NCBI GenBank assembly: GCA_937863185.1
Contig: CALMEG010000265.1
Span: forward strand, 1-35,998
Origin: an uncultured Paracoccaceae bacterium
GTDB taxonomy: Bacteria > Pseudomonadota > Alphaproteobacteria > Rhodobacterales > Rhodobacteraceae
Length of the DNA stretch: 35,998 nucleotides
Direction: 5' to 3'
A model generated the notes under the pieces. The model worked only from the letters and a program-made list of their open reading frames with translations. It made no database searches and was not told the DNA's origin. Position numbers and translations under genes: made by a program. Positions 1-26,674 of the stretch are shown here, one piece after another (position 1 is the stretch's first letter; the number at the start of each line of letters is the position of its first letter).

Positions 1-1661
1 GCAGCGATACACTCACCTTCGACGGGGCCGACATCTCTGCGGTCACGCTTCTCGCCGGGGGTGACGATCTGTCCACGGCCGATGGCGCCATCGACAGGCT
101 GACCTTCGCCGGTGTCACCGGGGCACTTGCGGGCACGAACCTGACGGGCTGGGAAAGCGTTCTCGTGGACGGGGGTGCGCTGCGCTTTACCGACAGCGCG
201 CTTGCCGTGGGGGCAGAGCCGGGCTTCGGCCTGACACTTGCCAATGGTGGCGCGATCGAGCTGGGCACAAGCTTCGCCATCACCGGCAACGTATCTAACG
301 GCGGCATCATCGCGCTTGGCGACGGCGCCGCGGGCGACCGGCTGACCATTGCCGGAGATTATACCGGCACCGGTGGCACGATCACGCTCGACACCGTTCT
401 GGGGGGCGATTCCTCGGCCACCGACCGGGTCACGATCAGCGGCGACGCCACCGGCAGCACTGGCCTTCTGGTCAGCCCGGCAGGCGGCGCGGGGGCCGAA
501 ACGGCCCTGGGCATCCAGCTTGTCGCGGTGGGGGGCACGTCTTCGGCGGACGCCTTCTTCCTTGCCAATGGCGCGCCGCTTGAACGCGGAGCCTTCGTCT
601 ACGCACTTGAATTCGGCAACCCCGCCGATGCGCTTGACCAAAGCTGGTATCTGCGCTCGACCGAGGTAATGGGTGGCAACGCCTCGATCTATGAAAGCGC
701 GCCCGGGGTTCTCATGGGCTTTGCCGACCTGCCGACGCTGGAACAGCGCGTCGGACAACGCCAATGGGCTGGCCGCGACAGTGCGACGCGCGGGCCGCTT
801 GAACCCGGACGCGGCGCCTGGCTGCGGCTGAGCGGCGACAGGAGCGATGTGAAGCCCGACACAAGCGCCTCCAGCGCCAGCTTTGAAACCACAAGCTGGC
901 AGCTTCAGGCGGGGCTCGATGCGCTGGTCCGCGAGGGCGAGAACGGCGTCTGGGTTCTGGGCGCGACCGCGCAATTCGGCCGGATCACGGGCGATGTCAG
1001 CAATTCGGTCGGCACCGGGCGGATCTCGGGGCGCGGCCTCGGGCTTGGCCTGACCGGCACCTGGTATGGCGATGCGGGCAGCTATCTTGACCTGCAAACG
1101 CAGGTGACGCGGATCCGTGCCGATTATGAGGCCGGAAGCTTCGGCACCTTGGCCGACGGCACGCATGCCACCGCCCTAGCCCTGAGTGCCGAAGTGGGTC
1201 ATCGCTATATTACCGGACCGAATACCGCGCTTGTGCCGCAGGCCCAGCTTAGCTGGGCGCGCCTATCCGGCGACGCCTTCACCGACAGCCTCGGCAACTC
1301 TGTCGATCCGGGCAACAACACAAGCCTGACCGGGCGCGTCGGCCTTGCCTATGAATACGAATACAGCGAAGGCTGGCTGTTCGGAGACCGCAAGGCGGCC
1401 GGCCCGCAGCGTCACCGCGAAAAGGCCTATGTGATCGGCAACCTGCTGCGCGACTTCTCGGCCGACAGCCGCGTCACGCTGAGCGGGACCGAGCTTGCCG
1501 CCGACTATGGCCGGACATGGGCCGAGATTGGCGTTGGCGGCTCGATCGTCTGGGACGGCAACAAGACGCTTTATACCGAAACGGCCTATCGCACCTCGCT
1601 TGACGGCGGGTCCGACAATCACGGCCTGTCGGTCGAGGGCGGCTTCCGCATGGCCTGGTAA
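1..1661 (+). CDS. Autotransporter (type Va secretion), C-terminal part with beta-barrel; 5' end outside window
   Basis: The reading frame is open from base 3, so the gene begins before the window; a GTG at 165 is only an internal codon. The visible 552 residues start with Gly/Thr/Ala-rich passenger sequence typical of a beta-helix. A pertactin-like autochaperone segment follows (GDYTGTGG, then GGDSSATDRV, ending near SWYLRS). The last roughly 270 residues, from about GRGAWLRLSGD, show the alternating hydrophobic/polar strands of an outer-membrane autotransporter barrel and end in an aromatic residue (GGFRMAW), the usual barrel-assembly signal. By family knowledge the barrel sits in the outer membrane and the passenger is exposed or released. 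The passenger's function cannot be told from this part. A terminator hairpin follows 23 bases after the stop. The autotransporter class is secure; a specific role is not. Confidence 0.9.
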   Translation, partial: SDTLTFDGADISAVTLLAGGDDLSTADGAIDRLTFAGVTGALAGTNLTGWESVLVDGGALRFTDSALAVGAEPGFGLTLANGGAIELGTSFAITGNVSNGGIIALGDGAAGDRLTIAGDYTGTGGTITLDTVLGGDSSATDRVTISGDATGSTGLLVSPAGGAGAETALGIQLVAVGGTSSADAFFLANGAPLERGAFVYALEFGNPADALDQSWYLRSTEVMGGNASIYESAPGVLMGFADLPTLEQRVGQRQWAGRDSATRGPLEPGRGAWLRLSGDRSDVKPDTSASSASFETTSWQLQAGLDALVREGENGVWVLGATAQFGRITGDVSNSVGTGRISGRGLGLGLTGTWYGDAGSYLDLQTQVTRIRADYEAGSFGTLADGTHATALALSAEVGHRYITGPNTALVPQAQLSWARLSGDAFTDSLGNSVDPGNNTSLTGRVGLAYEYEYSEGWLFGDRKAAGPQRHREKAYVIGNLLRDFSADSRVTLSGTELAADYGRTWAEIGVGGSIVWDGNKTLYTETAYRTSLDGGSDNHGLSVEGGFRMAW

Positions 1662-18496: not shown

Positions 18497-19431
18497 TGGA
18501 CCCGGCCCCCCTGTTCGATGCGATCGCCCGCGCCCCCGCGGGCGGACGCGCCTTCTGGTTGCGCGCCGCCGATGGCGTGCGCATCCGGCTGGCCGCGTGG
18601 CAGGGGCCGGAGGCGGCCAGGGGAACGGTATTCCTGCTGCCCGGACGCACGGAATACATCGAGAAATACGGCCCCGCCGCAGGCGAATTCGCCGCGCGCG
18701 GCTATGCCATGATCTCGGTGGACTGGCGCGGACAGGGGCTTGCCGACCGGCTGGTGGCGGACCCGGCCAAGGGCCATGTGTCCCGCTACCCGGAATATCA
18801 GCTGGATTTCGACGCGGTCTTGCGCTGCGTCGAAACGCTTGGCCTGCCCCGGCCGTGGTTCGTTCTGGGCCATTCGATGGGCGGCGCGATCGGCCTGCGC
18901 CGGCTGATGGATACGAATCCCTTCGCGGCGGCGGCCTTCTCGGCGCCGATGTGGGGGATTCGCCTGCCCCTGCCGCCCCTGTCGCGCGCGATTGCCCGCA
19001 CGCTCGAACGGGTCGGGCTGGACGAGATCTATGTTCCCACGACCTCGCCCGAGACCTATGTGCTGCGCACCGCCTTCAACCGCAACCGGCTGACCACGGA
19101 CCCGGCGATGTGGGCCTTCATGATCGAGCAGGTCGCGGCCGAGCCCGAGCTGACGATTGCCGGCCCGACGATCCGATGGCTGACGCAGTCGCTGCACGAA
19201 TGCGCGGCGCTTGCCGCGCTGCCGGCGCCGGACCTGCCTTGCTATTGCGCCCTTGGCGGGCTTGAGAAGATCGTCGAGATCGGCTGGGTCCATCGGCGGA
19301 TGGCAGGCTGGCCCGGGGGCAGGCTTGAAATCATCACCGGGGCCGAGCACGAGCTGATGATGGAAACGCCCCCCGCCCGCGCGCGGTTCTACGATGCCTG
19401 TGCGGCGCTTTTCGACGCTGCCCCGCGCTAA
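18496..19431 (+). CDS. Alpha/beta hydrolase, lysophospholipase / monoacylglycerol-lipase type
   Basis: The 311-residue enzyme has an alpha/beta-hydrolase fold: a strand plus oxyanion turn (VFLLPGRTEYIEKYG), VDWRGQG, the nucleophile elbow GHSMGG with Ser127, and a C-terminal catalytic His in GAEHELMMET. This pattern fits the PldB-like lysophospholipase group (COG2267). The ATG at 18496 is chosen because it overlaps the SCP-2 stop; a GTG three bases earlier is possible. No signal peptide is seen, so it is probably cytosolic. Its TAA stop (19429-19431) overlaps the TAG stop of the convergent Anbu gene. The substrate is inferred only from family. Confidence 0.9.
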   Translation: MDPAPLFDAIARAPAGGRAFWLRAADGVRIRLAAWQGPEAARGTVFLLPGRTEYIEKYGPAAGEFAARGYAMISVDWRGQGLADRLVADPAKGHVSRYPEYQLDFDAVLRCVETLGLPRPWFVLGHSMGGAIGLRRLMDTNPFAAAAFSAPMWGIRLPLPPLSRAIARTLERVGLDEIYVPTTSPETYVLRTAFNRNRLTTDPAMWAFMIEQVAAEPELTIAGPTIRWLTQSLHECAALAALPAPDLPCYCALGGLEKIVEIGWVHRRMAGWPGGRLEIITGAEHELMMETPPARARFYDACAALFDAAPR

Positions 19432-20153
19432 AGCTCGATCTGCGAAAAGGCGTCGCGCAGCGCCCGCGACCAGGCCCCGCTCATCGCGGCGAAATCCTTG
19501 TCGCCCGCCTCGATCCGGCGGATCATGCTCATCCGGCAGGCATCGCGCTCGATCACCGCAAGGTCCAGCGGCATCCCCACCGACAGGTTCGAGCGCAGGG
19601 TCGAATCCATCGACAGAAGCACCGCCTTCTGCGCATCGGCCAGCGAGGTCTCGCGCGACACGACCCGGTCGAGGATCGGCTTGCCGTATTTATGCTCGCC
19701 GATCTGAAGGAAGGGGGTGTCGGTGGTCGCCTCGATGAAATTGCCCTCGGGATAGATCAGGAACATGCGCATCGCGCCGCCCGCACGCTGCCCCGCCACG
19801 ATCATCGAGGCCGCTGTCGAGACCTTGGTCGCGTTCATCTTGTGCTCGATGTCCTGACGCACCGAGGCAAGGGTGTTGCCGACGATCTCGGCCACCTTGA
19901 GCATCGTCGGCGCCAGCAGGACCGAACTGTCGGGCGTGGCCTCGGCATCCTCGGCGGCCTCGTGCAGGCGCGCCATGGTGGTCTGCGTCACCGACAGGCT
20001 GCCCGCCGTCAGGATGGCGATCACCCGCTCCCCCGGTTCCTCGAAGGTGAACATCTTGCGATAGGTGGAGATATTGTCGAGCCCGGCATTGGTGCGGGTA
20101 TCGGACAAAAGCACAATGCCTGCTTCCAGCAGCAGGCCCACGCAATAGGTCAT
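19428..20153 (-). CDS. Anbu / bacterial proteasome homologue (N-terminal nucleophile peptidase)
   Basis: The 241-residue Ntn-hydrolase belongs to the Anbu (BPH) group of proteasome relatives. After Met removal Thr2 (MTYCVGLLLEAG) would be the nucleophile, and Asp18 and Arg20 (SDTRTNAG) and Lys33 (STYRKM) match the proteasomal active-site set. Published Anbu structures are open helical or ring assemblies, and measured activity is weak, so the substrate is not settled. It is the last gene of a four-gene run (CP-ATP-grasp, alpha-E, transglutaminase-like, Anbu), 32 bases after the transglutaminase stop, with AGGAA upstream of its ATG. It is not HslV: no HslU ATPase is adjacent and the N-terminus differs. 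Confidence 0.94.
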   Translation of the reverse strand: MTYCVGLLLEAGIVLLSDTRTNAGLDNISTYRKMFTFEEPGERVIAILTAGSLSVTQTTMARLHEAAEDAEATPDSSVLLAPTMLKVAEIVGNTLASVRQDIEHKMNATKVSTAASMIVAGQRAGGAMRMFLIYPEGNFIEATTDTPFLQIGEHKYGKPILDRVVSRETSLADAQKAVLLSMDSTLRSNLSVGMPLDLAVIERDACRMSMIRRIEAGDKDFAAMSGAWSRALRDAFSQIEL

Positions 20154-20185
20154 CTTCGTTCCTCGGCACCGGCGCGCCCGGCAGA

Positions 20186-20998
20186 TTATTGCTGCGTCGC
20201 CTCAAGTGCAACCGTCACGTCAAGGCTTTCCCGTCCGGCACCAAGCGCAATGCCCCGGATCGGTGCCGCATCCGCGGCGTCATAGCCCGAACCGAGGCGG
20301 ACATAAAGCTCGTTCGGGCAGCAACCATTGGCCGCGTCGAACCCGATCCAGCCCAGATCGGGCACATGGATCTCGGCCCAGGCATGGGCGGCCTCGTGCG
20401 GGGTGCCATCCTCGGCGGCATAAAGATACCCCGACACATAGCGCGCGGGCAGATCAAGGCTGCGCGCCGCCGCGATCAGAACCTGCGCGTGGTCCTGGCA
20501 AACGCCCTCGCGCAGCTCCAGCGCCTCGGCGGCGGAGGTATGGGCATGCGTCACGCCCGGACGATAGGCCACCGCGGCGCGCACCGCGCTTGCCAGGCGG
20601 TGCGCACGGTCCAGATCGTCCGATGCGCCCGCAACCGCCCCGGCCGCCAGATCGCGGATCGCCATGTCAGGCTCGGTCGCGGGCGTGTCGCGCAGATAGA
20701 CCATCGGCGGCACGGTTTCGCGGTGGCCGCGCAACATCCCGGCGGTGTCCTCGGTTTCCACGGTTCCCGTGACGCTGACGGCCAGGGCCGTCACCGGGCC
20801 GCGCACGGACCAGCCTTCGACCCGGTCCCCCGCCCCGTCCCGAAACGCGCCGCCCCGCGTTCCGCCCGGAATCTCGACCTTCCAGTCCAGCACGCGCTGC
20901 CCGGCAAAGCGCGTCGGAAACAGGCGCAGCGACTGGACGGCCGAACGCATCGGCGCATCGTAGCGGTAATGCGTGACATGATTGACGGTCAGGATCAT
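20186..20998 (-). CDS. Transglutaminase-like cysteine protease/transferase
   Basis: The 270-residue protein has an N-terminal beta domain of the bacterial transglutaminase-like type (residues 1 to about 100, starting ILTVNHVTHYRYDAP) and a papain-like core with Cys167 (REGVCQDHA), His205 (AAHAWAEI) and Asp221 (IGFDAANG) as the triad. Bacterial members are usually peptidases or amide-bond transferases. Its start overlaps the alpha-E stop as ATGA (20998-20995). Within the cassette it could cleave or transfer the peptide made by the ATP-grasp protein; that is inference from genomic association. Confidence 0.94.
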   Translation of the reverse strand: MILTVNHVTHYRYDAPMRSAVQSLRLFPTRFAGQRVLDWKVEIPGGTRGGAFRDGAGDRVEGWSVRGPVTALAVSVTGTVETEDTAGMLRGHRETVPPMVYLRDTPATEPDMAIRDLAAGAVAGASDDLDRAHRLASAVRAAVAYRPGVTHAHTSAAEALELREGVCQDHAQVLIAAARSLDLPARYVSGYLYAAEDGTPHEAAHAWAEIHVPDLGWIGFDAANGCCPNELYVRLGSGYDAADAAPIRGIALGAGRESLDVTVALEATQQ

Positions 20999-21948
20999 CG
21001 CGCTTCTCCGCTCAGGTAGATCTGCTGGACGAGTTCTGTAAGCTCTCCGATCTCGCCGATGAAGCGGGACAGGAATTCGTGCAGGCCCTCGTCGAAGATC
21101 TCCTGCACGGTCAGATCGGTCAGCTCGCTTTGCAAGGCGCGGGCGCGGGTCTGGGCGGGGGTGCGGCGGTCATAATCGCGCGCAAGACGGTTGAGATGCT
21201 CCAGCACCACGCTTGACGCCGCGATAAGCGAGCGCGGCATCTGCGGATTGAGGATCAGGAAATGGGCGATCTTGCCGGCGCTGATCTCTCCGCCATAGGC
21301 CCAGTGAAAGGCCCGATGCGCCGAAAGCGCCCGCAGGAGCGTGTGCCACTGATAGCTGTCGAGGCTGGAACCCACCAGATCGACATCCGGCAGCAGCACG
21401 AAATACTTCACATCCATCAGCCGCGCGGTGTTGTCCGCCCGTTCCAGCGCAAGCCCGAGGCCAAGGAAGTCATACCCGTCATTGCGCAAGAGCGTGGCGT
21501 CGATCGCGCCACGGATCTGCGCGGTCTTGCGCATGGTCCATTCGGTGATCTCGGTCAGGCTCAGGTCCGATCTGGGGCGGCGTTCCAGGCCGCGCATCTC
21601 CTGGAAGGCGGTGTTGATCGCATCCCAGGCCTGCGTCGTCAGCGCGGTGCGCACGATGCGCGCATTCTCGCGCGCCTTGCCGATGCAGGAGGCCACCGAC
21701 GAGGGGTTGTCGAGATCGAAGAACAGGTAGCTTTCGATATTGCGCTGCACCGCATCGTCATATTTGGCGCCAAAGCCCGCCGCCGTGCCCGAGGCCTGAA
21801 GCAGGCTTTCCCATTCGCTGCGATACCCGCGCCCCGCCGAGGGCATGAGCGCGATCCGCCCGCCCACTTCCAGCAGGCGCGCCATGGTTTCGGCGCGCTC
21901 GATATAGCGCCCGATCCAGAAAAGATTTTCCGCCGTCCGGCTCAGCAT
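20995..21948 (-). CDS. Alpha-E domain protein
   Basis: The 317-residue, almost entirely helical protein carries the signature from which the alpha-E family was named, with a conserved Glu-Arg near the start (AENLFWIGRYIERAETMARLL). Further charged helices (LERADNTARLMDVKYF) resemble a second copy of that motif. Its biochemical role is unknown to me. In sequenced genomes it almost always accompanies a circularly permuted ATP-grasp protein, sometimes fused. Here it starts six bases after the ATP-grasp gene and overlaps the transglutaminase-like gene by four bases, so the three are tightly coupled. Confidence 0.94.
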   Translation of the reverse strand: MLSRTAENLFWIGRYIERAETMARLLEVGGRIALMPSAGRGYRSEWESLLQASGTAAGFGAKYDDAVQRNIESYLFFDLDNPSSVASCIGKARENARIVRTALTTQAWDAINTAFQEMRGLERRPRSDLSLTEITEWTMRKTAQIRGAIDATLLRNDGYDFLGLGLALERADNTARLMDVKYFVLLPDVDLVGSSLDSYQWHTLLRALSAHRAFHWAYGGEISAGKIAHFLILNPQMPRSLIAASSVVLEHLNRLARDYDRRTPAQTRARALQSELTDLTVQEIFDEGLHEFLSRFIGEIGELTELVQQIYLSGEAR

Positions 21949-21954
21949 GTCAGG

Positions 21955-23370
21955 TCACTCCGCCAGAACCCAGGTATCCTTGACGCCCCCGCCCTGGGAC
22001 GAGTTCACCACAAGCGAGCCTTCGGTCAGCGCGACCCGCGTCAGGCCGCCCGGCACCAGCTCGATCGTGTCGCCCACAAGGCAATAGGGGCGCAGGTCGA
22101 CATGGCGCGGCGCGATCCCCTCTTCCACGAAGGTCGGCGTGGTCGACAGGGCAAGCGTCGGCTGCGCGATATAGTTCTCGGGGTCCTGCGAGATCTTCTG
22201 GCGGAACAGCGCGATCTGGTCGCTGCTGGCGCGCGGCCCGACAAGCATGCCATACCCGCCCGAGCCGTGCACCTCCTTGACCACCAGTTCCCCAAGGTTG
22301 TCGAGGACATATGACAGATCCCCGGCCTTGCCGCATTGCCATGTCGGCACATTCTGTAAAATCGGCTCTTCCCCCAGATAAAACCGCACCATTTCCGGCA
22401 CATAGGTATAGATCGCCTTGTCGTCCGCCACACCCGCGCCGGGCGCCGAACAGATGCTGACCCCGCCCGAGCGATAGACATCCATCAGCCCCGGCACGCC
22501 CAGCATGGAATCGGGCCGGAAGCACAGCGGATCAAGGAAGGCATCATCAAGGCGGCGATAGATCACATCCACCTTCTTCGGCCCCTCGGTCGTGCGCATC
22601 CAGACGAACCCGCCCTCGACGAACAGGTCCGCCCCCTCGACCAGCTCGACACCCATCATGTCGGCCAGGAAACTGTGCTCGTAATAGGCCGAGTTGAAAT
22701 GCCCCGGCGTCAGGATCACCACCGTCGGATCGCGGTCGCATTTCGCGGGGGCGACCGAACTCAGCGTGCGGCGCAGAAGCTCGGGGTAGCCGTCCACCGG
22801 CTCGATGCGGTTCTCGCCGAACAGGTCGGGGAACATGCGCATCATGATCTCGCGGTTTTCCAGCATGTAGCTGACGCCCGAGGGCGTGCGGCAATTATCC
22901 TCGAGCACGAAGAAATCGTCCGGGCCGGTGCGCACGAGGTCGATCCCCACGATATGGGAATACACCCCGCGCGGCGGGGTAAAGCCCGCAACCGCACGCT
23001 CATAGGCCTCGTTGTGATAGACCAGCCGGGCGGGAACGCGCCCCGCGCGCACGATCTCTCCCTTGCCATAGACATCAAGCAGGAAGGCATTGAGCGCCCG
23101 CGCGCGTTGCTTGATGCCCTTTTCCAGGCGGCGCCATTCGGGCTGGGTGAAGACGCGGGGAAACATGTCGAAGGGGATCAGGCGGTCGGGATCGCCGCCC
23201 TCGCCGTAAACCGCGAAGGTGATGCCGATACGGCGGAACAGCACCTCGGCCTCGGCCTGTTTCATCTGGCGCAGCTCGGCGGGCATCTGCCGGGTCCAGT
23301 CTTCCAGCCGCGCATAGGGGGGGCGGACCTGATCGCCGTCGAACATCTCGTTGAAATAGCTTGGGGACAT
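21955..23370 (-). CDS. Circularly permuted ATP-grasp protein
   Basis: The 471-residue protein matches the CP-ATP-grasp group (formerly DUF404/DUF407). Visible blocks are FFVLEDNCRTPSGVSYMLEN, the glycine-rich nucleotide loop VKEVHGSGGYGMLVGP, LRPYCLVGDTIELVPGGLTRVAL, and the C-terminal SSQGGGVKDTWVL. ATP-grasp enzymes activate a carboxylate with ATP and join it to an amine, so it is predicted to form amide bonds and build a small peptide or tag. It is the first gene of the cassette, has GAGGAAT ahead of its start, and is divergent from pepF over a 234-base intergenic region. Confidence 0.94.
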   Translation of the reverse strand: MSPSYFNEMFDGDQVRPPYARLEDWTRQMPAELRQMKQAEAEVLFRRIGITFAVYGEGGDPDRLIPFDMFPRVFTQPEWRRLEKGIKQRARALNAFLLDVYGKGEIVRAGRVPARLVYHNEAYERAVAGFTPPRGVYSHIVGIDLVRTGPDDFFVLEDNCRTPSGVSYMLENREIMMRMFPDLFGENRIEPVDGYPELLRRTLSSVAPAKCDRDPTVVILTPGHFNSAYYEHSFLADMMGVELVEGADLFVEGGFVWMRTTEGPKKVDVIYRRLDDAFLDPLCFRPDSMLGVPGLMDVYRSGGVSICSAPGAGVADDKAIYTYVPEMVRFYLGEEPILQNVPTWQCGKAGDLSYVLDNLGELVVKEVHGSGGYGMLVGPRASSDQIALFRQKISQDPENYIAQPTLALSTTPTFVEEGIAPRHVDLRPYCLVGDTIELVPGGLTRVALTEGSLVVNSSQGGGVKDTWVLAE

Positions 23371-23604
23371 GCTGCACTGATTCCTCGGACCTGTAGGGAA
23401 AGCTTAGGCAGCCAGTGCCCGCAAAGAAAGCGCTTCGGCCGGTTCGGGCACGGCGCTGCCCGGTTCTTGGGCAATTCACCGCCCATTTTGCGGGCGCCCG
23501 GCACCCGAATGCGCATAAATCGGGCAGATGTTGCAGGGGTGGCGGCCCTTGCGCTGCGCGCCCCCCTGCCCCTATCTGTGAGATGCAACAGACAAGAGGA
23601 CGCC
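23371..23604. other. Divergent intergenic region between the CP-ATP-grasp and pepF genes
   Basis: No gene is seen in these 234 bases, which must hold the promoters of both the Anbu cassette and pepF. Visible structure: GTGCCCG/CGGGCAC inverted arms (23415-23421, 23445-23451), and in the pepF leader GCAGGGG/CCCCTGC (23533-23539, 23563-23569) plus TGTTGCA/TGCAACA (23529-23535, 23584-23590). No convincing -35/-10 pair was found. Confidence 0.5.
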
Positions 23605-25422
23605 ATGACCCTGCCCCTGCCCCGCCCCGTATTCGATGCCAACGCAACTTCGGGCGGATTCGGAGACCTGCCGGACTGGGATCTGAGCGATCTGTATGCC
23701 GCCCCCGACGCCCCCGAATTCACGCGGGACATGGCCTGGCTTGAAAGCGCCTGCGCCGGTTTCGCCACCGATTACGAAGGCAGGCTTGCAGGGCTTGATG
23801 CCGCGGGCATGGCCGAATGCATCCGCCGCTATGAGGAAATCCACATCACGGCCGGGCGGCTCATGTCCTATGCGGGGCTGCGCTACTACCAGAACACCAC
23901 CGATGCCGCGCGCGCCAAGTTCATGGCCGACGCGCAGGACCGCATCACCGGCTTCACCACGCCGCTTGTCTTCTTCAGCCTCGAGTTCAACCGCATCGGC
24001 GATGCCGCCTATGAGGCGCTTTTCGCCGATGCGCGGATCGCGCGCTACAAGCCCGTCTTCGACCGGATGCGCGCAATGAAACCCCACCAGCTTTCGGACG
24101 AGCTGGAGAAGTTCCTGCACGACCAGTCCGTGGTGGGCGCCGCCGCCTGGAACCGGCTTTTCGACGAAACCGTCGCGGGCCTCGAATTCGAGGTCGAGGG
24201 CGAGGCGCTCAACCTTGAGGCCACCACCAACCTGCTGTCCGATCACGACCGCGCGCGGCGCGAGGCGGGGGCGAAGGCCCTTGCGCAGGTTTTCGGGCAG
24301 GAAATCAAGCTGTTCGCGCGGGTCCACAACACGCTGGCCAAGGAAAAGGAAATCGAGGACCGCTGGCGCAAGATGCCCAGCCCGCAGCATGGCCGCCACC
24401 TGTCCAACCATGTCGAGCCCGAGGTCGTGCAGGCGCTGCGCGACGCGGTGGTTGCAGCCTATCCGAAGCTGTCGCATCGCTACTACCGGCTGAAGGCGAA
24501 ATGGCTGGGGCTTGAGAAGCTTCAGATCTGGGACCGCAACGCGCCGCTGCCGACCGAAGCCCCGCGCAAGATCGACTGGGACGAGGCGCGCGAAACGGTG
24601 CTGTCGGCCTATTCCGCCTTTAGCCCGGAAATGGCGCGCCTTGCATTGCCCTTCTTTTCCAAGGGTTGGATCGACGCGGGCGTAAAGCCCGGCAAGGCGC
24701 CGGGCGCGTTCGCACATCCCACGGTGACGACGGTGCATCCCTATGTGATGCTCAACTACCTTGGAAAGCCGCGCGACGTGATGACCCTTGCGCATGAGCT
24801 GGGCCACGGCGTGCATCAGGTCCTGGCCGCCGGTCAGGGCGAGCTTCTGGCCTCTACCCCGCTGACGCTTGCCGAAACCGCCAGCGTCTTCGGCGAAATG
24901 CTGACCTTCCGCCGCCTGCTGGAAGCGGCCGCCACCCCGGCCGAAAAAAAGACCCTGCTGGCGGGCAAGGTCGAGGACATGATCAACACCGTGGTGCGCC
25001 AGATCGCGTTCTACGATTTCGAATGCAAGCTGCATGCCGCGCGCGCCGAGGGCGAGCTGACCCCCGAGGACATCAATGCGCTGTGGATGTCGGTGCAGGG
25101 CGAATCCCTTGGCGATGCCTTCGAGTTCATGCCCGGATACGAGACCTTCTGGGCCTATATCCCGCATTTCGTGCACTCGCCCTTCTATGTCTACGCCTAT
25201 GCGTTCGGCGACGGGCTGGTGAACGCGCTTTATGCCGCCTATGAAAGCGGGCTTCCCGGCTTCGAGGAGAAGTATTTCGACATGCTCAAGGCCGGCGGCT
25301 CCAAGCACCACAAGGAACTGCTCGCGCCCTTCGGCCTTGACGCAAGCGATCCGGCCTTCTGGGACAAGGGGCTGTCGATGATCGCAGGGCTCATCGACGA
25401 GCTGGAGGCGATGGAGGCGTGA
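23605..25422 (+). CDS. pepF: Oligoendopeptidase F (M3 family metallopeptidase)
   Basis: This 605-residue cytosolic zinc peptidase of family M3B cleaves short peptides. The zinc site is LAHELGHGVH with His397, Glu398 and His401; the third ligand is probably a Glu in LAETASVFGEM shortly after. The N-terminal helical lobe (DLPDWDLSDLYAAPDAPEF onward) and the total length fit PepF of alphaproteobacteria. The start at 23605 follows AGAGGA; the frame is open far upstream but that part is antisense to the ATP-grasp gene and has no similarity. It is divergent from the Anbu cassette and is followed on the same strand by a dipeptidase. Confidence 0.95.
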   Translation: MTLPLPRPVFDANATSGGFGDLPDWDLSDLYAAPDAPEFTRDMAWLESACAGFATDYEGRLAGLDAAGMAECIRRYEEIHITAGRLMSYAGLRYYQNTTDAARAKFMADAQDRITGFTTPLVFFSLEFNRIGDAAYEALFADARIARYKPVFDRMRAMKPHQLSDELEKFLHDQSVVGAAAWNRLFDETVAGLEFEVEGEALNLEATTNLLSDHDRARREAGAKALAQVFGQEIKLFARVHNTLAKEKEIEDRWRKMPSPQHGRHLSNHVEPEVVQALRDAVVAAYPKLSHRYYRLKAKWLGLEKLQIWDRNAPLPTEAPRKIDWDEARETVLSAYSAFSPEMARLALPFFSKGWIDAGVKPGKAPGAFAHPTVTTVHPYVMLNYLGKPRDVMTLAHELGHGVHQVLAAGQGELLASTPLTLAETASVFGEMLTFRRLLEAAATPAEKKTLLAGKVEDMINTVVRQIAFYDFECKLHAARAEGELTPEDINALWMSVQGESLGDAFEFMPGYETFWAYIPHFVHSPFYVYAYAFGDGLVNALYAAYESGLPGFEEKYFDMLKAGGSKHHKELLAPFGLDASDPAFWDKGLSMIAGLIDELEAMEA

Positions 25423-25498: not shown

Positions 25499-26674
25499 AT
25501 GCGCAAATGGGTGAAGATCGGAACGGGCCTTGTGGCACTGGGCGTCGTGGCCTTTTTCGGCGTGGCGCCGGGGATCGTCGAGAACGGCCAGAACCGCACC
25601 ACGGCGCATGAGCCTTGGCCGGTCTCGGCGGCCGCGCGCAAGCTGCATGCCGGGCTGGTGATCGGGGACTGGCATTCCGATGCCCTGCTGTGGGACCGCG
25701 ACCTGCGCCGCCGCACCGATCGCGGCCATGTCGATCTGCCGCGCCTGCGCGACGGCAATGTGGCGCTTCAGGTCTTCACCACCGTCACCAAAAGCCCCAA
25801 GGGCCAGAATTACGAACACAACACCGCCGACGCGCCCGACAACATCACCCCGCTGGTGATGGTGCAGCTGCGCCCTCCAGCGAGCTGGTTCGACCTGACC
25901 GAACGCGCGCTGGACCAGGCCGCGCGGCTGGCCCGCGTTGCCGAACAGGCGCCGGACGAGTTGCGGATCATCCGCACGCGGGCCGATCTTCAGGCCCTGC
26001 TCGATGCGCGCGCGGCCGGCGCCACGGTTACGGGCGGGCTGCTTGGCGCCGAGGGCGGGCACGCGCTTTCGGGCGATATCGACAATCTGGCCCGGCTTCA
26101 TGACGCGGGCTTCCGCCTTCTGGGGCTGACGCATTTCTTCGACAACGAACTGGGCGGCAGCCTGCATGGCGAGGGCGGCAGCGGCGCCGGGCTAAGCCCG
26201 TTCGGCCACGAGGTGCTGGCGCAGATGATCGTGCGCGACATGGTGATCGACCTTGCCCATGCCTCGCCGCAGATGGCCCGCGAGGTGCTGGCGCAGGACG
26301 GCGCGCGGCCCATCGTGTCGCATACCGGGATCTACAGCCATTGCCCGACGCAGCGGAATTTTCCCGACGAGCTGATGCAGGCGATCGCCGCGAAGGGCGG
26401 GCTGATCGGTATCGGCTTCTGGGCCGATGTCACCTGCGATGCAAGCCCGCAGGGCGTCGCCCGCGCCATCATGGCGGCGGTTGCGCTTGTCGGGGCCGAT
26501 CATGTCGCGCTCGGCTCGGATTTCGACGGCGCGGTGGAAACCGCCTTCGATTCCTCGGAACTGGCCGCGCTGACGCAGGCGCTGATGGACGAGGGCCTGC
26601 CCGAACCCGCGATCGCGCAGGTCATGGGCGGCAACATGATGCGCTATCTGGCCGAAACCCTGCCCGAGGGTTGA
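25499..26674 (+). CDS. Membrane-anchored M19 dipeptidase (renal dipeptidase family)
   Basis: The 391-residue protein has an N-terminal membrane anchor (KIGTGLVALGVVAFFGVAPG, about residues 6-25) without an obvious cleavage site. The catalytic barrel shows the binuclear zinc residues of family M19: HxD in GDWHSDALLWD (His59, Asp61), the bridging Glu in GLLGAEGGHAL, His in DLAHASPQMA and VSHTGIYSH, and Asp in LGSDFDGAVE. It hydrolyses dipeptides, probably in the periplasm. It begins 76 bases after pepF, so co-expression is possible, and converges with the Hint-fold gene with only three bases between the stops. Confidence 0.93.
   Translation: MRKWVKIGTGLVALGVVAFFGVAPGIVENGQNRTTAHEPWPVSAAARKLHAGLVIGDWHSDALLWDRDLRRRTDRGHVDLPRLRDGNVALQVFTTVTKSPKGQNYEHNTADAPDNITPLVMVQLRPPASWFDLTERALDQAARLARVAEQAPDELRIIRTRADLQALLDARAAGATVTGGLLGAEGGHALSGDIDNLARLHDAGFRLLGLTHFFDNELGGSLHGEGGSGAGLSPFGHEVLAQMIVRDMVIDLAHASPQMAREVLAQDGARPIVSHTGIYSHCPTQRNFPDELMQAIAAKGGLIGIGFWADVTCDASPQGVARAIMAAVALVGADHVALGSDFDGAVETAFDSSELAALTQALMDEGLPEPAIAQVMGGNMMRYLAETLPEG

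What the first reader, a model, noticed from the sequence alone, without database searches (positions are those of the whole stretch)
19428..23370. Complete, tightly coupled Anbu cassette: CP-ATP-grasp, alpha-E, transglutaminase-like, proteasome homologue
All four genes are present in one minus-strand run with junctions of 6 bases, a 4-base overlap and 32 bases. Active-site residues look intact: Thr2/Asp18/Arg20/Lys33 in Anbu and Cys167/His205/Asp221 in the transglutaminase-like protein. Comparative genomics has proposed that these families build and degrade a peptide or tag, but to my knowledge the product is unproven. This is the best candidate for an incompletely described system in the window.
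Basis: partly seen in the sequence, partly recalled or inferred. Interest (0 to 1): 0.75.

Follow-up and report, generated by a model that had tools for sequence, protein, structure and literature searches.

The report
Anbu operon under nitrogen-starvation control
A bacterial operon of four enzyme genes, one of them a relative of the proteasome, carries in its promoter three copies of a DNA switch that also sits before the nitrogen-control genes glnB and ntrBC, so it is likely turned on when nitrogen runs short; what it builds and cuts is still unknown.

Summary
In detail: an intact Anbu cassette (CP-ATP-grasp, Alpha-E, transglutaminase-like, Anbu) with 6-base, 4-base-overlap and 32-base junctions and intact catalytic residues. 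The cassette is a known kind: 79 of 80 related loci carry it in the same order, the exception ending with its contig. Three results add to it. (1) Upstream lie three tandem 17-base palindromes, the three best matches in the 36-kb window to a matrix trained without it. The same matrix has its best match upstream of glnB in 30 of 30 glnB-glnA loci and sites before dusB-ntrB-ntrC and urtA in the own genome. The operator is almost certainly an NtrC box; the own NtrC lacks GAFTGA and no sigma-54 pattern is found. (2) Gene content is nested: ATP-grasp and Alpha-E are the core; 68 of 70 Anbu-positive genomes (200 searched) have Alpha-E; the transglutaminase is dispensable. (3) Alpha-E is a tandem duplication, each half with an ER motif. 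Best reading: a nitrogen-starvation system that makes and cleaves an unknown amide product. NtrC control about 0.9; make-and-break mechanism about 0.5.

The parts
21955..23370 (-). Circularly permuted ATP-grasp (type 2), 471 aa, predicted amide ligase
   Evidence: Pfam PF14403 548 bits; solved relative 3n6x 659 bits; 125 positions nearly invariant over 143 rows
20995..21948 (-). Alpha-E protein, 317 aa, all-helical, tandem duplication of a unit of about 155 residues
   Evidence: Pfam PF04168 298.6 bits; AlphaFold pLDDT 92; halves align, hhalign 99.4%, E 1.2e-21, 145 columns
20186..20998 (-). Transglutaminase-like (papain-fold) protein, 270 aa, Cys167/His205/Asp221
   Evidence: Pfam PF01841 and PF08379; triad nearly invariant over 128 rows
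19428..20153 (-). Anbu, proteasome-like Ntn hydrolase, 241 aa, Thr2 (Thr1 after Met removal), Asp18, Arg20, Lys33
   Evidence: Five solved Anbu sequences match at 193.7-253.8 bits, the last a designed one; residues nearly invariant over 120 rows
23457..23473 (.). Palindrome, predicted NtrC box 1
   Evidence: Score 7.9, second best in the 36-kb window
23480..23496 (.). Palindrome, predicted NtrC box 2
   Evidence: Score 7.3, third best in the window
23510..23526 (.). Palindrome, predicted NtrC box 3
   Evidence: Score 11.9, best in the window
23403..23430 (-). Candidate sigma-70-type promoter (CTTTCT ... TGCCTAAG), by eye only
   Evidence: CTTTCC-like and TGCCTAAG-like blocks recur in the alignment of upstream regions; coordinates counted; no start site known
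23371..23604 (.). 234-base intergenic region shared with the divergent M3 oligopeptidase gene (starts 23605)

Best explanation
This is an intact four-gene Anbu operon whose promoter carries three tandem copies of a palindrome that also precedes glnB and ntrBC, so it is likely switched on by NtrC in nitrogen starvation, when ATP-grasp and Alpha-E would join an amide bond that Anbu and the transglutaminase-like protein would later cut. Shown by sequence: the four genes, intact catalytic residues, the palindromes and their recurrence before glnB-glnA and dusB-ntrBC, an NtrC without GAFTGA in the same genome, and no sigma-54 pattern upstream. Inferred: that NtrC is the protein that binds, and that it activates rather than represses; ligation by ATP-grasp (its Yersinia relative releases phosphate from ATP); a substrate-handling or second catalytic role for the duplicated, arginine-rich Alpha-E; cleavage of the product by Anbu. 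The nested gene content (Anbu goes with the ATP-grasp/Alpha-E pair but not always with the transglutaminase) fits Anbu acting on what the pair makes. The most likely purpose is to store or salvage nitrogen through a modified peptide, amine or protein.
For: Operator: rank 1 in 50 of 57 loci of 21 kb in a two-fold cross-validation; 17 of 20 loci of a second clade whose ATP-grasp is 61-69% identical; 13 of 40 loci of other families. Column-permuted matrices gave at most 7, 8 and 4 in 60 permutations each. glnB upstream: best match in 30 of 30 loci, glnA in the piece in 30 of 30, above shuffles at p<=0.05 in 30 of 30, 0 of 200 permuted matrices as good. Own genome: sites before dusB-ntrB-ntrC (L174, score 17.7) and urtA (L171, 9.6); NtrC without GAFTGA. 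Sigma-54 pattern: 0 of 74 Rhodobacteraceae regions, 4 of 40 regions of other families against a shuffled mean of 0.014. Literature, passages only: ATP-grasp/Alpha-E/transglutaminase cluster under sigma-54 and NtrC in Burkholderia cenocepacia (PMC5491218); Anbu raised in nitrogen-limited Pseudomonas putida (PMC5666114); abundance of these domains follows urea-metabolism domains in marine metagenomes (PMC3597751). Nesting: 68 of 70 Anbu genomes have Alpha-E (recounted; odds ratio 66); one single-contig genome, G294, has Anbu but no transglutaminase match.
Against: No peptidase activity was found for Anbu and no specific interactions among the operon's proteins (PMC6376114); expression did not change under various conditions in a Pseudomonas aeruginosa-type data set (PMC5666114). 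The palindrome was not rank 1 in 7 of 57, 3 of 20 and 27 of 40 loci; permuted matrices reached 8 of 20 once in the short 6-kb loci. Four of the six own-genome places lie in coding sequence and are probably chance. The own NtrB and NtrC are best matches to their families but score below the curated cut-offs (207.6 of 240; 401.4 of 558.6). G287 has Anbu with no Alpha-E match; a second exception, G334, is a weak match with three stop codons; one of the 68, G339, is a 43-residue fragment. The main texts of papers on the NtrC regulon of Caulobacter (a genus with Alpha-E, control), on R. capsulatus nitrogen-fixation proteomes and on Paracoccus nitrate growth do not name these genes by the words searched. 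No substrate is known.
Confidence: 0.6

Rival explanations
1. Protein tagging and degradation: ATP-grasp, Alpha-E and the transglutaminase-like protein attach a peptide or amino-acid tag to proteins, and Anbu removes the tag or degrades the tagged proteins, as proposed earlier.
For: Proposals summarised in PMC6376114 and PMC5666114 (passages); proteasome relationship of Anbu; nitrogen starvation is a time of protein turnover (general knowledge).
Against: No separate tag gene fits between the four genes (6, -4, 32 bases); no AAA+ unfoldase among the five neighbours scanned; Anbu inactive on the proteasome substrates tried; Anbu is absent from 44 of 112 Alpha-E genomes, so the pair can work without a proteasome-like partner.
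Confidence: 0.2
2. Small-molecule route: the ATP-grasp/Alpha-E pair makes a small peptide or amide (for example on glutamate or a polyamine) as a nitrogen store or signal, and the hydrolases recycle it; no protein is modified.
For: The nearest solved relative is named a putative glutathionylspermidine synthase; in loci such as L136 and L142 the pair stands without Anbu or the transglutaminase within about 20 kb; nitrogen operator.
Against: No biosynthetic partner or exporter was seen fixed beside the cassette; no product is known. It overlaps with the best explanation and differs only in the substrate.
Confidence: 0.35
3. The palindrome belongs to another regulator with a similar motif (for example an Lrp/AsnC or LysR type), and the operon is not under NtrC.
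For: NtrC binding was not measured; the assignment rests on promoters shared with genes that the literature places under NtrC.
Against: Best match upstream of glnB in 30 of 30 glnB-glnA loci, and sites before dusB-ntrBC and urtA; the related cluster is NtrC-dependent in Burkholderia.
Confidence: 0.08

Closest known systems
Anbu operon (Yersinia bercovieri, Pseudomonas, Hyphomicrobium; PMC6376114, PMC5666114, passages read)
   Same: Same four genes in the same order; catalytic residues as in the solved Anbu chains
   Different: No promoter operator appears in the passages read; here three tandem NtrC-type boxes and no sigma-54 pattern
NtrC/sigma-54-dependent DUF404-407, DUF403, transglutaminase cluster of Burkholderia cenocepacia H111 (I35_5080-5083; PMC5491218, passages read)
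   Same: ATP-grasp, Alpha-E and transglutaminase-like genes under nitrogen control
   Different: Includes a large transglutaminase-like protein, Anbu is not among the four genes named, and control goes through sigma-54; here no sigma-54 pattern
Rhodobacter capsulatus NtrC regulon (nifA1, nifA2, mopA, anfA; PMC6925177, passages read)
   Same: NtrC acting with the housekeeping sigma factor; the own-genome NtrC also lacks GAFTGA
   Different: The Anbu operon is not among the targets named in the passages read
Enlarged cassette: transglutaminase of about 1100 aa, fused ATP-grasp/Alpha-E of about 850 aa, transglutaminase of about 290 aa (for example L125, L127, L134, L144)
   Same: Same protein families, sometimes with Anbu
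   Different: ATP-grasp and Alpha-E fused, with a very large extra transglutaminase; no second Alpha-E in the own genome

Membership tests
Anbu cassette | ATP-grasp, Alpha-E, transglutaminase-like and Anbu genes in one directional run | tested here: met
   same order in 79 of 80 related loci
Anbu cassette | Anbu Thr right after Met, Asp and Lys of the catalytic set (Thr1, Asp17, Lys32/33 in YbAnbu) | tested here: met
   T2, D18, K33 (and R20) in the window, nearly invariant over 120 rows; aligned to solved Anbu chains
Anbu cassette | No AAA+ unfoldase gene beside it | tested here: met
   Five neighbouring proteins scanned with Pfam: alpha/beta hydrolase, M19, M3, Suv3-like helicase, TPR; the rest of the genome not tested
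Anbu cassette | Open-ring Anbu particle and its activity | not testable with these tools
   Needs purified protein
20S proteasome beta subunit | Reaches the curated score for an archaeal-type proteasome beta subunit | tested here: not met
   TIGR03634 22.5 bits against a cut-off of 224
NtrC-regulated operon of the Rhodobacter type | Tandem TGC-N11-GCA-like boxes upstream, shared with known NtrC targets | tested here: met
   Three boxes (the middle one starts CGC); shared with glnB-glnA, dusB-ntrBC and urtA. glnBK, ntrBC and, in Rhodobacterales, urea transporters are NtrC targets in PMC5343134 (passages)
NtrC-regulated operon of the Rhodobacter type | No -24/-12 promoter and an NtrC without GAFTGA | tested here: met
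   Pattern in 0 of 74 family regions, window included; own NtrC on C139 lacks GAFTGA
NtrC-regulated operon of the Rhodobacter type | NtrC binds and activates the promoter | not testable with these tools
   Needs footprint, ChIP or a reporter
Protein-tagging system (Pup- or ubiquitin-like) | A separate tag protein gene | tested here: inconclusive
   None fits between the four genes (junctions 6, -4, 32 bases); the rest of the genome was not searched for one

The most novel reading that the evidence does not exclude
The Anbu operon is an NtrC-driven nitrogen-starvation pathway across Pseudomonadota, in which the ATP-grasp/Alpha-E pair, Alpha-E being a duplicated helical enzyme with two ER-motif half-sites, makes an undiscovered amide product that Anbu and its partner hydrolase take apart; a close bacterial cousin of the proteasome would then be a nitrogen-salvage enzyme rather than a protein-quality-control protease.
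Probability: 0.4. Interest if true: 0.78.

Novelty: new member of a known kind. Interest (0 to 1): 0.55.

Why it matters
Anbu has solved structures but no known substrate or activity; the assays in the passages read used standard proteasome peptides. A promoter that carries the glnB-type operator suggests when the system is on, so its product can be looked for by withdrawing ammonium from a genetically easy host such as Rhodobacter capsulatus, which carries the cassette. The nested gene content says which proteins to test together first (ATP-grasp with Alpha-E, then Anbu), and the duplication of Alpha-E offers two matching sets of conserved residues to mutate.

Tried and rejected

A sigma-54 promoter in front of the operon was the first idea, from the Burkholderia paper: not found in 74 family upstream regions. 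GCAC-N5-7-GTGC was found in 7 of 114 regions only.

Motif discovery used 74 of 81 regions (window plus 80 loci; seven loci, named, were dropped by the script's filters for hit or upstream length). Width 15 gave a different, weaker consensus; widths 17 and 19 converged on the palindrome (71 of 74 above the threshold). Palindromic symmetry was imposed. The shuffled control of that call used width 15 only (11 to 13 of 74), so I rely instead. In one search the matrix for the 57 loci was trained on those loci; the cross-validated count is the same, 50.

A three-mismatch pattern search of the own genome gave six places, two of them before known nitrogen genes and four inside ORFs; with one mismatch in 21 genomes it gave two places, one of them at an Anbu operon (L177). 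Too blunt to define a regulon.

Extra genes inside the cassette in some relatives (L049, L059, L085, L104) have no Pfam family and gave no lead.

Papers: Iyer 2009 (PMC3268129) and Valas 2008 (PMC3235984) are not held; their proposals are cited through other papers. No held paper has both whole words NtrC and Anbu; the searches listed none that I could see linking Anbu to NtrC in Rhodobacterales. All papers were seen as passages only.
Full report
What is there. The window is one contig of a genome of 3.08 Mb in 315 contigs whose nearest named relatives are Rhodobacteraceae. The closest solved relatives are 3n6x for the ATP-grasp (659 bits), five Anbu sequences (193.7-253.8 bits, the highest a designed one) and 3isr for the transglutaminase-like protein (51 bits); Alpha-E has none by sequence. 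The genome has one Alpha-E match.

Conservation. By tblastn, 79 of 80 loci collected by ATP-grasp similarity carry all four genes in the same order; the exception, L100, ends with its contig, and in L084 Anbu is cut by the contig end. In alignments of full-length stand-alone copies (other hits left out; some genomes appear under two loci), Anbu T2, D18, R20 and K33 and transglutaminase C167, H205 and D221 are nearly invariant, and 125 of 471 ATP-grasp positions are (143 rows, 40 of them from other families). This points to an active, strongly selected system, not a relic.

Which parts depend on which. In 40 loci taken from other families, chosen because they hold a stand-alone Alpha-E, ATP-grasp lies next to Alpha-E in 40 of 40, Anbu lies within the piece in 22 of 40, and the strict four-gene run occurs in 14 of 40 (counted). 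Over 200 genomes of the phylum sample, Alpha-E is found in 112 and Anbu in 70; 68 of the 70 also have Alpha-E (recounted; Fisher odds ratio 66, p 1e-20; related genomes are not independent). The two exceptions are G287, a real Anbu with no other cassette gene in the 16 kb read, and G334, a weak match with stop codons; one of the 68, G339, is a 43-residue fragment. Anbu is missing from 44 of 112 Alpha-E genomes. G294, a one-contig genome, has ATP-grasp, Alpha-E and Anbu (L141) but no match to the transglutaminase; in that call six other Anbu genomes without a standard four-gene run had only partial or weak matches (E 1.5e-14 or worse), while G381 and the own genome had full ones. So ATP-grasp with Alpha-E is the core, Anbu is a dependent addition and the transglutaminase is optional. 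A larger relative of the cassette, with fused ATP-grasp/Alpha-E and a transglutaminase of about 1100 aa, occurs in several families.

Alpha-E. AlphaFold gives a confident all-helical model (pLDDT 92, pTM 0.91) whose helix pattern repeats after residue 154 (by eye). Profile comparison of the two halves of a 60-sequence alignment aligns 145 columns (hhalign 99.4%, E 1.2e-21): the ER motif at 17-18 matches the ER motif at 169-170, W46 matches W201, and P82-S83-S84 matches P238-R239-S240. Alpha-E is thus a tandem duplication with one conserved set of residues per half. No known fold was recognised.

The promoter. A search for a palindrome in the 200 bases upstream of ATP-grasp in 74 family regions converged on TGCCCAAATTTTGGGCA. 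In a two-fold cross-validation the upstream site was the best match in its whole 21-kb locus in 50 of 57 (0.5 expected by area). A matrix trained without the window has its three best matches in the 36-kb window at 23510, 23457 and 23480, all upstream of this operon. A second clade, with ATP-grasp only 61-69% identical, gives rank 1 in 17 of 20 loci of 6 kb; loci of other families give 13 of 40. Column-permuted matrices gave means of 0.8, 1.5 and 1.0, and at most 7, 8 and 4. The site stays upstream of ATP-grasp where the divergent M3 gene lies about 3 kb away (for example L050, L053, L078 and L087), so it goes with the cassette.

Which regulator. The matrix was then tried on the 30 P-II loci returned from 61 genomes of the order (the 30 best matches). 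All 30 hold glnA in the same piece (the own copy is GlnA by TIGR00653), so they are glnB-glnA loci. The best match lies in the glnB upstream region in 30 of 30, in 26 of them 120-150 bases before the start, often with a second site about 20 bases away (one start corrected). Shuffles were beaten at p<=0.05 in 30 of 30, and 0 of 200 permuted matrices did as well. In the own genome a three-mismatch pattern search gave six places: one before dusB-ntrB-ntrC (L174, score 17.7; DusB by TIGR00737; the kinase and the regulator on the same contig C139 are best matches to NtrB and NtrC but under the curated cut-offs), one before urtA (L171, TIGR03407), and four in coding sequence, probably chance. glnBK, ntrBC and urea transporters are NtrC targets in the comparative literature (PMC5343134, passages). 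The own NtrC lacks the GAFTGA loop, as stated for Rhodobacterales in PMC10274813 (passages), and R. capsulatus NtrC works with the housekeeping sigma factor (PMC6925177, passages). In agreement, the sigma-54 pattern is found in 0 of 74 family regions but in 4 of 40 other regions (shuffled mean 0.014). Independent support: the Burkholderia cenocepacia genes I35_5080-5083 are listed at -6.0 to -9.4 in the table of ntrC-mutant changes (PMC5491218, passages), Anbu rises in nitrogen-limited P. putida (cited in PMC5666114 and PMC6376114), and these domains follow urea-metabolism domains in marine metagenomes (PMC3597751, passages). Against: papers on Caulobacter, R. capsulatus and Paracoccus nitrogen regulation do not name these genes by the words searched. 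NtrC control of the ATP-grasp/Alpha-E core is thus published for Burkholderia; the operator in Rhodobacteraceae, in a cassette with Anbu, I did not find in print.

Mechanism. ATP-grasp enzymes join a carboxylate to an amine through an acyl phosphate (family knowledge; also PMC6376114), and the Yersinia protein releases phosphate from ATP (same). Anbu has an intact Ntn-hydrolase site, yet no activity has been seen. The nested gene content fits an order in which ATP-grasp and Alpha-E make something that Anbu cleaves; the transglutaminase-like protein may act as a second amidase or as a transferase. Timing by NtrC makes nitrogen storage or salvage the most likely purpose. The ligation, the cleavage and the substrate are inferred, not shown.

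Verdict. The cassette is a good example of a known kind whose function is open. What is added here is the likely identification of its operator as an NtrC box in this family, the nesting of gene content, and the duplication inside Alpha-E (whether that is in print was not searched). Together they turn 'unknown function' into a nitrogen-starvation experiment.

Noticed in passing
L049:13288-13956, L059:13233-13955, L085:6103-6660: Some relatives (L049 Pseudotabrizicola, L059 Pseudorhodobacter, L085 a Rhodobacter MAG) have an extra gene (185-240 aa, no Pfam family) between the transglutaminase-like gene and Anbu; in L049 and L059 it ends in what looks like a membrane helix (by eye).
   Followed up: partly
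L104:11420-11995: An ORF of 191 aa with no Pfam family lies between ATP-grasp and Alpha-E in one Rhodobacteraceae genome.
   Followed up: partly
L125, L127, L134, L144: Enlarged version of the system: transglutaminase of about 1100 aa, fused ATP-grasp/Alpha-E of about 850 aa, transglutaminase of about 290 aa, beside the small ATP-grasp/Alpha-E pair.
   Followed up: partly
window 23605-25422 (+) and 25499-26674 (+): An M3 oligopeptidase and an M19 dipeptidase gene stand divergently beside the operon; M3 keeps this place in many of the 80 related loci but lies kilobases away in others (not counted).
   Followed up: partly
L152:6035-6775 (genome G287): Orphan Anbu with none of the other three genes in the 16 kb read and no Alpha-E match in the genome.
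   Followed up: partly
L153:9170-10045 (genome G211): A divergent Anbu (95.5 bits, 37% identity) far from the ATP-grasp/Alpha-E pair of its genome (L114).
   Followed up: no
window 165-1661 (+): Autotransporter beta-domain protein with an autochaperone domain, near the contig edge.
   Followed up: no
G000:C309:2499-2515 (L170): A good match to the NtrC-type palindrome (12.7) lies inside the coding sequence of an amino-acid carrier (TIGR00835); probably chance.
   Followed up: partly
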